Part shown: one piece after another, positions 40-10,504 of the stretch
How positions within the stretch are numbered: the stretch's first letter is position 1
Layout of the letters: every line of letters begins with the position of its first letter
NCBI RefSeq assembly: GCF_002584535.1
Contig: NZ_NUOT01000077.1
Coordinates: forward strand, 1-32,254
Source: Bacillus cereus
Lineage (GTDB): Bacteria; Bacillota; Bacilli; Bacillales; Bacillaceae_G
DNA: 32,254 bases
Direction of reading: 5' to 3'
Notes under the pieces: generated by a model
What the model was told of the DNA's origin: nothing
Databases searched by the model: none
Seen by the model: the letters and a program-made list of their open reading frames with translations, nothing else
Position numbers and translations under genes: made by a program

Positions 40-168
40 TTAGATAGTTTCTCCATGATCTAAACAAAGTAGATTAGCTTTAGCTGATGGCTCTTCAATA
101 GATTGATTAGCAACACCAACAGATAAAATCCCCGTAAAAATCATTACAGTTAAAATTAGTTTTTTCAT
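40..168 (-). CDS. phr: Phr signalling peptide precursor
   Basis: A 42-residue ORF starts 5 nt after the rap stop codon. It has a secretion leader (MKKLILTVMIFTGILSVGVA) and a short hydrophilic tail ending in LDHGETI. This is the architecture of Phr precursors: exported, trimmed outside the cell, re-imported by Opp and bound by the cognate Rap. The C-terminal heptapeptide LDHGETI shares its HG and final Ile with YAHGKDI, the Phr8 peptide of B. thuringiensis as I recall it, so the tail is the likely mature signal. The exact cleavage site is inferred, not seen. Position directly behind rap on the same strand is the normal cassette order. Confidence 0.85.
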   Translation of the reverse strand: MKKLILTVMIFTGILSVGVANQSIEEPSAKANLLCLDHGETI

Positions 169-173
169 TATTT

Positions 174-1244
174 TTATGCTCCCTTCTCTAAATCTTTTTT
201 GTCAGCATCTAGGGCAATGTGAAAGAATCTACTGGCTTTTTCATAATTGTTTAGGTCATAGAATTTGTTTCCGAGAATTGAAGCATATTCTTTTACATGA
301 CCCCATAGGTTTTCCTTCTTGAAATAATATATTCCCGTCATAATAACTTTCTCTAGTTCCCCAATCTCTGCCCCCTTATTGAGTTCTCTTAAGATAGCGA
401 AATGGCACTTATATTCTTTAAGTTTTGTAAGGTTATATCCTACCTCAATTAGATCTGCAGCAAGAAAATTTTCTCCTAACTTATAATATTCCCTAGCTAA
501 TAAGAACATAGTTCTAGGGTTATTTTTTAAAGAATCCTTTAAATATTTAATCGCTAACTCTGAAAGGTTTTGATCAGCATATAATAATCCTAAATTATGT
601 TTCACTTTACCTATTAGTTGTTCTTCGCCATATTTTTCAAATATTCTAAGAGCCGAAATGAAATTTTCCTCCGCAATTTCAAACAGTCTAAGTTTTGTAC
701 AAGCAAGTCCTATGGTATTTTGACAGGAAGCAACTTTCATTTCATATCCTGTATGTTTCGAAAATACCTCTTTTGCCTTATTAGCATATTTTGCAGCCAA
801 CAACGGGTTTAAGGATTGATAATGGAATACTGCAAACATGTAATCAAATTCAGCCTTTTCTAATTCATCTGGAATCGTTGCTAAGAGTTTTTCAGCCTTC
901 TCATATTGTTCTTTTGCTTCATTATGATTTCCAACCGAAATTGCATAAATAGCTTTGAAGAAATGATAATAATATTTCAAAAATGTTTCGGTTTGCTCTG
1001 GAAATGGAGCAATCTTTTCTAGACAGTCTTTAGAACCATCTGTATCACAAACCAGTAAATTATATCTAAAGTTAAGTAGAGAATAATAGATAGAGATATT
1101 AGAGTCTTCCTCCATACTATGAATATTTCTATCAATCTCTTCCTTTAAGTGCTTAGCTTTTATTATATGTTGAGAAATAATTGCATTATACCAACCGCTT
1201 AATAATGTTATTATTTCTTCTTTTGCTATTATATGTGTATCCAT
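174..1244 (-). CDS. rap: Rap-family TPR response-regulator phosphatase/inhibitor
   Basis: The protein has about 356 residues, the usual Rap size. The N-terminal helical region (about residues 1-75, with LLSGWYNAI) is followed by repeated tetratricopeptide helices such as the segments around GLACTKLRLFEIAEENF and GLLYADQNLSELAIKYL. Rap proteins act in the cytoplasm, dephosphorylating Spo0F~P or blocking response regulators, and are inhibited by their Phr peptide. The start at 1244 is preferred over an ATG four codons upstream because GAGG lies 6 nt before it. The gene follows npr on the same strand after about 160 bp with no clear terminator, so read-through from the protease is possible. The target (Spo0F, ComA-like or other) cannot be told from sequence. 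Confidence 0.88.
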   Translation of the reverse strand: MDTHIIAKEEIITLLSGWYNAIISQHIIKAKHLKEEIDRNIHSMEEDSNISIYYSLLNFRYNLLVCDTDGSKDCLEKIAPFPEQTETFLKYYYHFFKAIYAISVGNHNEAKEQYEKAEKLLATIPDELEKAEFDYMFAVFHYQSLNPLLAAKYANKAKEVFSKHTGYEMKVASCQNTIGLACTKLRLFEIAEENFISALRIFEKYGEEQLIGKVKHNLGLLYADQNLSELAIKYLKDSLKNNPRTMFLLAREYYKLGENFLAADLIEVGYNLTKLKEYKCHFAILRELNKGAEIGELEKVIMTGIYYFKKENLWGHVKEYASILGNKFYDLNNYEKASRFFHIALDADKKDLEKGA

Positions 1245-1403
1245 AATATTCCTCATCCTATTATAGTAATATCATCATAAAAAACAAATTTTCCGACATC
1301 TAACTTTCCATAGTCGAAACAATGGCAGAACATGTCCAATCCCTTGCTTATGCAGCCATTATGTGCTGAGTCCATCAATACGGATAAGAGCTATATTTCT
1401 CGC

Positions 1404-3107
1404 TTACTTAATTTTCGCTGCATCAAACGCTTTTTGAACTGCTTGAACTTCAGCTGAGTTAGCCCCATATTTATTTGTTGCAACTCGAATGCAACCCGCT
1501 CTCAATTCAGAGAAATCAGAAGTCATGTTTAATTCATCAGTGTTTGCATAATGGAAGATATCAAACATTTTATCCTCGCCAATACCTTTTACAATTACAC
1601 CGTTATGAGTGCCACCTTTTGCAATTAAATACGCAACTTTATTAATAATACTAGAGTTGAAATGAACGCCACCATTATCCCATCCATTAAAATCGTTAAA
1701 TTCACTATAATCATCTGGATAAGGTACTCCAGCTGAAGATTTAATTGAAGATGGATTTGCCATATCACGGAACACCGCTCCCGTTTGCTCTCCCATTGTC
1801 CAGTTAAATGCTCCATTATTTACGTATTTCTCAATAGCTGTTCCCATAATATCAGATAACGCCTCGTTAATCGCACCAGATTCTCCGGAATATTCCAAAT
1901 CGGATTCACTAGATGTAACCGCATGTGTAAATTCATGTCCCGCTACGTCAAACGCCTTTACAATAGGATCTCCGTATACAAGCATGCTACCATTATTATA
2001 ACTTGCTGCATTCTGCCAATTTTTCGGATCATTTGTATCTGCAGAATCCCAAGCATGTATAACTGATACTACTTTTTGTCCCTTATTATCAAAACTATTA
2101 CGCTTATATTTATCCTTATAAAAATCATATACTTTTGTTGCTAAGTAATGAGCGCTTACCGCCTTTGGATCATTAAATGTTGTTGAAGTGCTAGTTGCTA
2201 GAGTACCAGGATAATATCTTTCTTCTTTAGTAATATCCCTATAATTTACATCATACGTTTCAATTCCTTGCCCTCTAGTGTAATCAGCAAGCGCATATTT
2301 TCCATTACTTTGTTTAGAGATACCAAATGTACGAGAGATACCTAAATCATCTTTTCCTGTTCCAGTTAATGATGTAAGATTGCTTTTTCTACTTTCCTTT
2401 AAGGCCCCAACAAGCTTTTCACTAGCTTTTAAGTTAGATTCCTGCACCATATTTTTCAACATATCCCCATTATGTGCATTCACTAAATATGTTCCAGATA
2501 CATATTTTGGTGTTGCAGCAGCAAATGTAACTTGGTATGCATTGCTGGCTTGTCCATTATTTTCATCAACAAAAATAACTTCCTTTACTTCTGGTTCAGA
2601 AATAAAATTGATATCATTCCCGTATTTCGTATAAATATATTGTTTCGCTTCTTCTTGTGATAGATTAATAGGCTTCTTTAAATCTTCTTGCTTTAAATTT
2701 TGCGCGCTATCCCCTGAAACACTTTTAAGAACACCCTTTTTATCTACGTGTGCAGTCAATTGATGGCCATATACTTCTTTTCCTTCGTATGTTTGTTGCA
2801 TACGCACAAGTGTCGTCCCATCATAAGAAGCTCGCTTTTGAAGAACCTTATAATCTACTCCTGTTTCTCCATTCACTTGTTTTGGAGACAACGCTTGCTC
2901 TGTTTTCTCTTTAAGAGCATCTTTTACTACATTCTCTGGCTCCTTTTGTGATGGTTGTGTAAGTTCACCTGTACGAAACGAATCCTCTTGAATTTGAACT
3001 TGTAGTTGATCTGTTTCCTCTGCATGACCTACTCCATATGGTGCTACGGCAGTTAAAGCTAATCCTGTTGTTAACGCGACTGTAGCTAATGTTTTTTTAT
3101 TCTTCAT
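1404..3107 (-). CDS. npr: Secreted neutral metalloprotease (bacillolysin, M4 thermolysin family)
   Basis: A 567-residue preproprotease. The signal peptide (MKNKKTLATVAL..., cleavage near GHA-EE) is followed by an FTP/PepSY-type propeptide (about residues 50-240) and the M4 catalytic domain. Zinc motif HEFTH lies at about H391-H395 with the third ligand E415 in GAINEALSD; the GGVHFNSSI segment holds the catalytic His. Two adjacent ATGs follow GAGGTGA; the second (3107) has the better spacing, while a longer upstream extension has no ribosome site. A PlcR box lies about 100 bp upstream, so expression is probably PlcR-dependent. In B. cereus a neutral protease, NprB, has been reported to process the PapR pheromone, which matters here because a PapR-like gene lies upstream. 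Whether this is NprB or a paralogue I cannot decide. Confidence 0.95.
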   Translation of the reverse strand: MKNKKTLATVALTTGLALTAVAPYGVGHAEETDQLQVQIQEDSFRTGELTQPSQKEPENVVKDALKEKTEQALSPKQVNGETGVDYKVLQKRASYDGTTLVRMQQTYEGKEVYGHQLTAHVDKKGVLKSVSGDSAQNLKQEDLKKPINLSQEEAKQYIYTKYGNDINFISEPEVKEVIFVDENNGQASNAYQVTFAAATPKYVSGTYLVNAHNGDMLKNMVQESNLKASEKLVGALKESRKSNLTSLTGTGKDDLGISRTFGISKQSNGKYALADYTRGQGIETYDVNYRDITKEERYYPGTLATSTSTTFNDPKAVSAHYLATKVYDFYKDKYKRNSFDNKGQKVVSVIHAWDSADTNDPKNWQNAASYNNGSMLVYGDPIVKAFDVAGHEFTHAVTSSESDLEYSGESGAINEALSDIMGTAIEKYVNNGAFNWTMGEQTGAVFRDMANPSSIKSSAGVPYPDDYSEFNDFNGWDNGGVHFNSSIINKVAYLIAKGGTHNGVIVKGIGEDKMFDIFHYANTDELNMTSDFSELRAGCIRVATNKYGANSAEVQAVQKAFDAAKIK

Positions 3108-3224: not shown

Positions 3225-3324
3225 TTTTAATGTTGATAATTAGTTATTTACATTCAATTATTCTAGAAAAAATTAATGTTTATATGGATCTAACTAATCC
3301 TTATTTAAGAACAAACATTAAAAA

Positions 3325-3414: not shown

Positions 3415-3582
3415 TCAGCATGGATTGAATTTGTTTTCAAATTCTGTTTTAGCAATTTTAATATATTTATTAACAAACTCTGTTTGTACTTCCATGTTTC
3501 TGTCTTGGTCATATTCATACGTATCTATTAAACTCCTTTTTAATTTAAAGCAAAAGTAATACAAGAAATAGATACTATTCAT
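3415..3582 (-). CDS. Small ORF of unknown function, possibly a gene with a lost start codon
   Basis: This frame is open for 55 codons from an ATG with no ribosome binding site. The second part reads like a soluble protein (IDTYEYDQDRNMEVQTEF, then a Lys/Glu-rich helix ending NKFNPC). An AAAAGGAG motif lies inside the ORF and is followed after TTTA by ATA-GAT-ACG; if that ATA was once ATG, the original protein would be about 37 residues. The unit stands between two stem-loop terminators, which argues that it was once a separate gene. I do not recognise the family. It may be a remnant. Confidence 0.3.
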   Translation of the reverse strand: MNSIYFLYYFCFKLKRSLIDTYEYDQDRNMEVQTEFVNKYIKIAKTEFENKFNPC

Positions 3583-3595
3583 AGTTTATACAAAC

Positions 3596-3627
3596 AAAAA
3601 CGAAGTCTTGTGGAGGACTTCGTTTTT
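3596..3627. terminator. Bidirectional stem-loop terminator
   Basis: Arms AAAAACGAAGTC and GACTTCGTTTTT form a perfect 12-bp stem with an 8-nt loop and T-runs on both strands. It most likely ends the transcript of the PapR-like gene at 3799-3930. Confidence 0.8.
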
Positions 3628-3798
3628 TACAGTGCATAATGAATTACAGGAATTATTAACACTTTTATATTATTCAACAATTCTGAATGCGGTTCTTTTC
3701 GTTTAAAAACTATGCTACAAATCCGAAATATTCTCTTTTTGATGTAGTTGGAAATTCTCTTATTTTCGTTAGTTTGATAGCACTAGGAATATACCCTA

Positions 3799-3930
3799 TT
3801 AATGTTCAAATGGTAGATCAGACATAACCTTCTCTTCTTCCTCTTCATGACTTTCACCACATAATGCCACTGTTGGTATAATTAATCCCGTTGCCAATGC
3901 AAACGTTATTATTTCTTCTTTACTTTGCAT
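3799..3930 (-). CDS. PapR-like pheromone precursor ending in SDLPFEH
   Basis: A 43-codon gene with a strong ribosome site (GAGGTGA, then AAAC, then ATG). The protein has a hydrophobic leader (roughly IITFALATGLIIPTVAL), an acidic linker (HEEEEEK) and the C-terminus VMSDLPFEH. SDLPFEH is, as I recall, the PapR heptapeptide of pherotype IV, the ligand that activates PlcR in that strain group. The leader also resembles that of the neighbouring protease: both have FALATGL/VALTTGL blocks, a GTCATG-AGAGGAA stretch at the cleavage zone and the same GCGAGGTGA or CGAGGTGA leader. No plcR gene lies beside it, so it would be an orphan signal or antagonist. The peptide signature and ribosome site are visible; function is inferred. 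Chance similarity is unlikely because a decayed second copy also ends in LPFEH. Confidence 0.7.
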   Translation of the reverse strand: MQSKEEIITFALATGLIIPTVALCGESHEEEEEKVMSDLPFEH

Positions 3931-4142
3931 GTTTTCACCTCGCATAATTTATATAGTACCATATTAAGATTGAATATTTTATATGTCGCATCAAAATAAT
4001 AGTGAAATGCATTTTCTATAAAATTTTAATGAACAGTCTATTGCTTGTTATTTACGACAGGTGATGTGTGTCATTGATGAACTAGAAGAGTTTTTCAAAA
4101 AAGAAGCAACCGTGTTTACTGACGTTTGTTTCTGTTACATTC

Positions 4143-4269
4143 GTGCTCAAATGGTAAATTAAAATCAGCTATACAATTTCCTTTTTGTGGTATTTTTCAT
4201 ATTGTTCCATAACTAATAAAACTAATTCTGCTGTTAACAAAACATTATATACAAATTTCCCCTATTTAT
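4143..4269 (-). pseudogene. Decayed second copy of the PapR-like gene
   Basis: On the minus strand GGTGAAAAAC is followed by ATA where the intact gene has ATG. The stretch then runs 127 nt to a codon series reading NLPFEH (TTA CCA TTT GAG CAC); the intact copy takes 129 nt for the same span. A hydrophobic segment (LLTAELVLLVM) and a charged linker (EKYHKKEIV) lie in one frame and ADFNLPFEH in another, so a frameshift, the lost start and a TAG stop break it. Homology rests on the matching ends, the length and the leader pattern; the middle has diverged a lot. Confidence 0.45.
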
Positions 4270-4715: not shown

Positions 4716-4925
4716 TTAATGAGTGAATCTACCGCCAAGCTGTTGTTCAGCCATAGCTACTAAACGTTTTGTAATCTCACCACCAACTGAACCATTTGCA
4801 CGAGATGTTGTGTCTGGACCAAGCTGTACGCCAAATTCTTGTGCAATCTCATACTTCATTTGATTAATTGCGTTCTCAGCACCTTGAATCACTACATTAT
4901 TATTTCTGTTATTTTTATTTGCCAT
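4716..4925 (-). CDS. sasP: Alpha/beta-type small acid-soluble spore protein
   Basis: A 69-residue DNA-binding protein that coats and protects spore DNA in the forespore and is degraded at germination. It shows both family signatures: the GPR protease site region [10 protein letters not shown] and the C-terminal block [22 protein letters not shown]. The ATG at 4925 follows AGGAGGTGATACAT; an in-frame GTG three codons upstream lies within the ribosome site and is rejected. Single-gene unit. The N-terminus is Asn-rich ([10 protein letters not shown]), as in several B. cereus group SASPs. Confidence 0.97.
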
Positions 4926-9841: not shown

Positions 9842-10489
9842 TTAGTGTGTTGCCCCGCCGCATTCTACAATATCTGTTTCTACCTCTAATGCGACCTGTA
9901 TTAACAATTCAATTCCTTTTGTAATAACAGGCAGTGACATACTTGATTGCCCAGGATGATTACTTGCTTGCTTTGGCAAAAATGGAATATGTATAAAACC
10001 ACCTCGGATCCTATTTCCATTCTTACCTAACATATGCATAAGTCCATAAAAGAGATGATTACAAACAAATGTACCTGCAGTTTGCGAAACAGAAGCTGGT
10101 ATTCCTTCTTCACGAAGTTTCTTTACAATCACTTTCATTGGAAGCGTAGACCAATATGCGACTGGTCCTTCTTCTATAATAGGTACATCAACCGGCTGAT
10201 TCCCCTCATTATCAGGAATCCTTGCATCATCAACATTAATTGCAATTCGTTCCACTGTAATATCTGGGCGTCCTCCTGCTTGTCCTATACATATAACAAG
10301 CTCTGGTTCTATTTCCTCCATATAAGTCTGTAACACTTGTAGTGATTTATGAAACACAGTGGGGACTTTTTTACTAATAATCTTGTAATCTCCCATCACT
10401 TGGCCATCTAGTTCCTTTGCAACTTCCCAGGCAGGATTCATTTCTTCTCCACCAAAAGGCTCAAACCCTGTTAACAATACTGTCTTCAT
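9842..10489 (-). CDS. pcp: Pyrrolidone-carboxylate peptidase (pyroglutamyl peptidase I)
   Basis: A 215-residue cytosolic cysteine peptidase (C15) that removes N-terminal pyroglutamate from peptides. The triad is visible as E80 (DITVERI), C143 ([13 protein letters not shown]) and H167 (GGFIHIPF), one lower than the B. amyloliquefaciens numbering as I recall it. The start at 10489 gives the standard family length; an ATG immediately upstream and a GTG are alternatives. Last gene of the pyroglutamate operon, it supplies 5-oxoproline for PxpABC. Confidence 0.97.
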
Positions 10490-10504
10490 CATCCCCACTC
10501 CCTT

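What the first reader, a model, noticed from the sequence alone, without database searches (positions are those of the whole stretch)
3799..3930. Orphan PapR-like gene with a protease-like leader next to a PlcR-box protease
The 43-residue product ends in SDLPFEH, which I recall as the PlcR-activating heptapeptide of pherotype IV, yet no plcR lies in the window. Its leader and translation start look like those of npr (CGAGGTGA, ALATGL versus ALTTGL, and a shared GTCATG-AGAGGAA stretch), as if a pheromone tail had been joined to a protease secretion signal. NprB is reported to mature PapR, so a PapR-like gene 690 bp upstream of a PlcR-controlled neutral protease could be a self-contained booster, or a way to feed a foreign pherotype signal (cross-talk or cheating).
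Basis: partly seen in the sequence, partly recalled or inferred. Interest (0 to 1): 0.87.

Follow-up and report, generated by a model that had tools for sequence, protein, structure and literature searches.

The report
Orphan PapR-type pheromone gene near protease
A tiny gene in what looks like a Bacillus cereus-group chromosome encodes a short protein that looks like a protease secretion leader ending in the exact seven residues of a known cell-to-cell signal, so it may be a spare source of that signal or the remains of one.

Summary
The 43-codon ORF (3799-3930, minus) has a strong Shine-Dalgarno site and ends in SDLPFEH, the PapR class IV (strain G9241) heptapeptide. Its first part is homologous, as DNA, to the leader of the M4 protease gene (npr) 690 bp downstream (0 of 1000 shuffles as good; best non-self match in the window). 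The tail does not align to npr beyond chance. New: a second LPFEH is encoded on the same strand 341 bp upstream, in a broken frame; LPFEH is expected 0.01 times per shuffled window. It is probably a decayed sister copy, though its leader similarity is weak. npr has a perfect PlcR box; the ORF has none. The ORF also lacks a positively charged leader start, fails the Pfam PapR cut-off, is separated from npr by a terminator, and lies near a grpB fragment. I favour a chimeric orphan pheromone precursor, with a decaying relic as close rival. A PlcR-box thermolysin (AQ16_5317) was implicated in maturing PapR in G9241; npr may be its orthologue, untested. No B. cereus-group chromosome was searchable, so conservation and the strain's own pherotype are unknown.

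The parts
3799..3930 (-). orphan PapR-like ORF, 43 aa, C-terminus SDLPFEH (3802-3822)
3833..3950 (-). ribosome-binding site plus leader homologous to the npr 5' end
   Evidence: score 83, shuffle maximum 39, 0 of 1000; best non-self place in the window; 64 of 99 nt and 14 of 33 aa identical in frame
4116..4246 (-). probable decayed sister copy: broken frame, second LPFEH at 4143-4157, no ATG in its stop-to-stop piece (4116-4199)
   Evidence: leader similarity weak
3596..3627 (-). intrinsic terminator between the ORF and npr
   Evidence: 12-pair stem plus T tail; -19 kcal/mol for 3585-3640, z -6.7
3421..3543 (-). 3' fragment of a grpB-like gene
   Evidence: tblastn 8e-13, 63% identity to the C-terminus of a Bacillus arachidis plasmid GrpB
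3209..3224 (.). perfect PlcR box of npr
1404..3107 (-). npr, secreted M4 (thermolysin-type) protease with propeptide and HEFTH motif
174..1256 (-). Rap-type protein (RapH_N plus TPR)
40..168 (-). likely phr of the Rap (42 aa, MKK start, hydrophobic leader)
   Evidence: no Pfam family, named by position and shape

Best explanation
The ORF is an orphan precursor of the PapR class IV signal. Its ribosome-binding site and export leader share descent with the npr 5' end, most simply as a copy of it, and its last seven codons give the PapR7 peptide. Steps: translation from the GAGGTGA site (read from sequence, not measured); export by Sec (inferred); extracellular trimming to SDLPFEH by PlcR-regulated M4 proteases such as the neighbouring npr (inferred from published work on G9241); re-import by Opp and binding to a class IV PlcR or a PlcR paralogue (inferred from literature). 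It would add signal outside the plcR-papR operon and, as it has no PlcR box, outside the PlcR feedback loop. A probable sister copy upstream has already decayed.
For: Exact heptapeptide at the C-terminus. Motif far above chance and present twice on one strand. Leader homology to npr. Of 4 small ORFs with a 6-base Shine-Dalgarno match it is the only one that is neither SASP nor inside a larger ORF. Hydrophobic core (best 15-residue hydropathy 2.14 against 1.84 for npr). Glycine after the hydrophobic helix, as reported for PlcR-type propeptides. Terminator downstream. Published link between a PlcR-box thermolysin and PapR maturation in the strain whose PapR7 is SDLPFEH.
Against: Net charge -1 in the first six residues against +3 in npr's first eight, and no lysine pair, which 56% of RRNPPA propeptides carry. 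No PlcR box with up to 2 mismatches at 3931-4185; the best promoter-like site within 150 bp upstream on its strand scores 9 of 12, and the region scanned has about as many such sites as shuffles (15 against 11.2). Pfam PapR 13.4 bits against a cut-off of 27; the last 23 residues alone give 12.4 bits, and without the last six residues there is no match. Differences from npr fall 14/9/12 on codon positions, so no sign of protein-level constraint on the leader. Decaying surroundings (grpB fragment, broken second copy). No conservation data.
Confidence: 0.48

Rival explanations
1. Relic. A papR-tail/npr-leader recombinant arose and was duplicated, and both copies are now decaying; the ORF is intact only because it is short and recent, and makes little or no signal.
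For: Broken second copy, negative leader start, no PlcR box, grpB fragment nearby, no codon-position bias.
Against: Intact frame, strong Shine-Dalgarno site and exact heptapeptide are all kept; well-formed terminator.
Confidence: 0.37
2. It feeds a receptor other than the strain's own PlcR: an orphan PlcR paralogue (PlcRb or PlcRc, reported without peptides) or the PlcR of another pherotype.
For: PlcRb and PlcRc have no associated peptide. The ORF has no PlcR-like gene within the window (by eye); the nearby Rap has its own phr-like ORF.
Against: No direct evidence; SDLPFEH is the class IV PlcR ligand itself.
Confidence: 0.1
3. Chance: a decayed npr leader that happens to end in SDLPFEH.
For: The leader really is npr-like.
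Against: SDLPFEH was not seen in any of 200 window shuffles; two LPFEH where 0.01 are expected; the tail does not align to npr better than shuffles (1172 of 2000 as good).
Confidence: 0.05

Closest known systems
PapR, PlcR-PapR quorum sensing, class IV (SDLPFEH; B. cereus G9241)
   Same: Exact C-terminal heptapeptide; small precursor with hydrophobic leader and a spacer (43 aa here, 48 aa reported)
   Different: No plcR next to it, no PlcR box, leader homologous to npr, negative leader start, below the Pfam PapR cut-off
PapRa-PlcRa
   Same: PapR-like peptide gene apart from plcR
   Different: PapRa is 93 aa, lies just upstream of its receptor gene, and its CSIPYEY is internal
Pheromones of PrgX (Enterococcus)
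   Same: Signal usually not encoded near its receptor gene. Recalled, from no call: some of these peptides come from secretion signals of unrelated exported proteins, so a pheromone tied to a secretion leader has a precedent
   Different: Other receptor family and other peptide; here the signal lies at the C-terminus of a separate small ORF, after the leader
Duplicate propeptide genes of Rap systems
   Same: More than one gene for a signal
   Different: Those described lie next to the receptor gene; this one has no PlcR-like gene nearby
NprP2 (BC_2735 / AQ16_5317)
   Same: PlcR-box thermolysin-type protease, like the npr here; in G9241 implicated in PapR maturation
   Different: Orthology to the window's npr was not testable; argued only by elimination of NprB (next to plcR) and NprC (BC3383, numbered next to the enhancin-like mpbE BC3384)

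Membership tests
PapR (PF05968) | C-terminal PlcR-activating heptapeptide of one of four classes | tested here: met
   SDLPFEH, class IV
PapR (PF05968) | Whole-protein match over Pfam's gathering score | tested here: not met
   13.4 bits against 27; without the last six residues no match
PapR (PF05968) | Gene about 70 bp downstream of plcR | tested here: not met
   No plcR-like ORF among 69 listed (by eye); the Pfam scans covered 14 window ORFs, of which only the Rap has TPR repeats
PapR (PF05968) | PlcR-controlled expression | tested here: not met
   No box with 0-2 mismatches at 3931-4185; the next site, 4186-4201, has 2 mismatches, and about 33 sites with up to 2 mismatches are expected per window. 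Sequence level only
PapR (PF05968) | Sec-type export leader | tested here: inconclusive
   Hydrophobic core and following glycine present; charge of the start is -1 and no KK. No signal-peptide predictor was available
PapR (PF05968) | Mature peptide activates PlcR | not testable with these tools
   Needs experiment
Phr of the neighbouring Rap | Small gene directly downstream of rap | tested here: not met
   That place is taken by the ORF 40-168
npr leader paralogue | Significant DNA homology to the npr 5' end | tested here: met

The most novel reading that the evidence does not exclude
A new pheromone gene made by exchange of parts: a protease's translation start and secretion leader joined to a quorum-sensing tail, amplified in tandem, and placed next to the kind of protease that matures the signal. 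It would be an orphan, PlcR-independent source of a class IV signal that receptor-anchored searches for such systems would miss.
Probability: 0.33. Interest if true: 0.75.

Novelty: new variant of a known kind. Interest (0 to 1): 0.55.

Why it matters
RRNPP signal genes are usually sought next to their receptors. An orphan precursor with a working heptapeptide would mean that PlcR can be fed from outside the plcR-papR operon, without the PlcR feedback loop, and that strains could send a pherotype other than their own. It would also show how a new pheromone gene can arise, from a secreted enzyme's leader. If it is a relic, it is still a record of that process.

Tried and rejected
Conservation. 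The ORF as query found no relative in genome contigs (123 stretches matched a pattern, none confirmed) or viral contigs (25 stretches, none confirmed); in plasmids and phages tblastn gave one chance-level hit each (E 5 and 0.5). The intergenic DNA as query gave, over the ORF, only a chance-level hit in a Borreliella plasmid (E 0.1, 3 of 23 records not listed). npr as query: nothing in viral contigs, and in plasmids 84 records, each with less than 60% identity at its best place. The neighbouring methyltransferase as query gave 5 distant loci in genome contigs, none from Bacillus, so the collection seems to lack the B. cereus group and these negatives say nothing about conservation.

Tail derived from npr by small changes: rejected, 1172 of 2000 shuffles align as well. 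Third remnant at about 3274-3307: 29 of 2000 locally, but its score of 27 is within background over 2568 tiles of the window; dropped. Second copy: its tail is better than shuffles locally (0 of 2000) but its score (27) is within the same window background (unrelated places reach 28); its leader is not significant against the ORF's leader (127 of 2000) and marginal against npr's (9 of 2000; 4 of 1000; tied with an unrelated place in the window scan). It rests mainly on the rarity of LPFEH and on being the best non-npr place for the whole ORF (47 against 39; 45 against 41). The 180 bases upstream of the ORF and of npr align somewhat better than shuffles (18 of 1000); not followed up. ORF 3415-3582 as a remnant of a PlcR- or Rap-like gene: rejected; it is a grpB fragment. 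ORF as the phr of the Rap: rejected.

Papers: PMC10017872, PMC8140105, PMC5007282, PMC3673130, PMC3519770, PMC4147580, PMC2464732, PMC7267880, PMC3171730, PMC4162614, PMC4701985: passages only. PMC9765709: passages and section 9. PMC10075063: search listing with start of abstract. Three primary papers on PapR classes and NprB (PMC545710, PMC2441798, PMC2678557) are not held. An orphan or second papR was not seen in the listings of searches (open-licence library only).

Full report
What is there. Reading the minus strand, the order is: SASP gene (4716-4925), a broken LPFEH-encoding stretch (about 4246-4116), the 43-codon ORF (3930-3799), a terminator (3627-3596), a grpB fragment (3543-3421), a perfect PlcR box (3224-3209), npr (3107-1404), rap (1256-174) and a phr-like ORF (168-40). 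The window gives no name; the content (PlcR box, M4 protease, PapR motif) points to the Bacillus cereus group, which is inference.

The ORF is more than chance. SDLPFEH is the PapR7 of B. cereus G9241 (passages of PMC10017872) and PapR IV (passages of PMC8140105 and PMC3673130). LPFEH occurred on average 0.01 times per dinucleotide shuffle of the window (200 shuffles) and 0.0007 times per shuffle of the 1.6-kb intergenic region (3000 shuffles); it is observed twice, both on the minus strand. The looser class [LVMI]P[FY]E[FYH] followed by a stop, observed once, was reached in 3 of 200 window shuffles and 4 of 3000 intergenic shuffles. Of 4 ATG ORFs of 20-70 codons with a 6-base Shine-Dalgarno match, this is the only one that is neither SASP nor inside a larger ORF; that scan missed the phr-like ORF.

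The leader is npr-like. From 8 bases before CGAGGTGA to just past the EE pair, the ORF and npr align over 119 columns with score 83; 1000 shuffles reached at most 39. npr is the best non-self place among 640 tiles (83 against 47 for the second copy and 39 for the next) and among 1276 tiles (73 against 45 and 41). In reverse the ORF is the best place for the npr leader (83; tiles not overlapping the ORF reach 36; 1277 tiles). In frame, 64 of 99 bases and 14 of 33 residues agree, with differences 14/9/12 over codon positions, so the leader shows no clear protein-level constraint. The tail does not align to npr beyond chance. Which event made it (recombination with papR, or selection on a leader copy) is not shown, nor is the direction of copying.

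A second copy. At 4143-4157 a second LPFEH is encoded 341 bp upstream on the same strand, in a stop-to-stop piece of 26 codons without ATG. As DNA the whole ORF matches this place better than shuffles (48, 0 of 1000, shuffle maximum 44), but only just better than the next unrelated place in the window (47 against 39; 45 against 41). Its leader taken alone is not significant against the ORF's (127 of 2000). I call it a probable decayed sister; my confidence in that is about 0.75.

Does it work? For: intact frame, translation site, hydrophobic core, glycine after the helix, a terminator downstream. Against: net charge -1 at the start against +3 in npr, no lysine pair (56% of RRNPPA propeptides carry one; section 9 of PMC9765709), no PlcR box at 0-2 mismatches between 3931 and 4185, weak promoter-like sites only, and decayed neighbours. 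Pfam's PapR model gives 13.4 bits against a cut-off of 27, and the last 23 residues alone give 12.4. It should not be filed as a PapR family member; it carries a PapR IV tail and may work like a PapR precursor.

The protease. npr is an intact-looking M4 enzyme (FTP propeptide, catalytic domains, HEFTH) with a perfect PlcR box. In ATCC 14579 the PlcR-controlled neutral proteases listed in the passages I saw are NprP2 (BC2735), NprC (BC3383) and NprB (BC5351). NprB is reported next to plcR, and NprC is numbered next to the enhancin-like mpbE (BC3384); I saw neither plcR nor an enhancin among the window's listed ORFs. NprP2 is left by elimination, which is weak. In G9241 the PlcR-box thermolysin AQ16_5317, 97% identical to BC_2735, gave a slight rise in haemolysis when expressed constitutively, which the authors read as PapR processing. 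If npr is its orthologue, an SDLPFEH-encoding ORF lies upstream of a protease reported to mature a PapR with that same heptapeptide. That would be striking, and it is testable.

Precedent. [quoted passage not shown] I saw no orphan or second PapR gene in the listings of the searches named under Tried and rejected.

Limits. No genome is held for the window. The collections I could search gave no B. cereus-group chromosome, so conservation, copy number, the strain's own pherotype and protease orthology are all untested.

Noticed in passing
window 40-1256, minus strand: A Rap-type protein (RapH_N plus TPR) with a phr-like ORF 5 bp downstream (42 aa, MKK start), next to the PlcR-box protease: a second peptide-signalling cassette in the same 4 kb.
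   Followed up: partly
window 3421-3543, minus strand: 3' fragment of a grpB-like gene, 63% identical to the C-terminus of a GrpB on a Bacillus arachidis plasmid, where an IS4-family transposase gene lies next to it.
   Followed up: partly
window 10033-10048: A second perfect PlcR-box sequence, inside the coding sequence 9842-10498 (pcp-like, named from its sequence by eye); perfect boxes are expected 0.15 times per window and 1 of 100 shuffles held two, so it may be chance.
   Followed up: no
window 3560-3666: The terminator region after the ORF recurs at 73-77% identity at places without a listed gene on plasmids of Bacillus arachidis and Peribacillus.
   Followed up: partly
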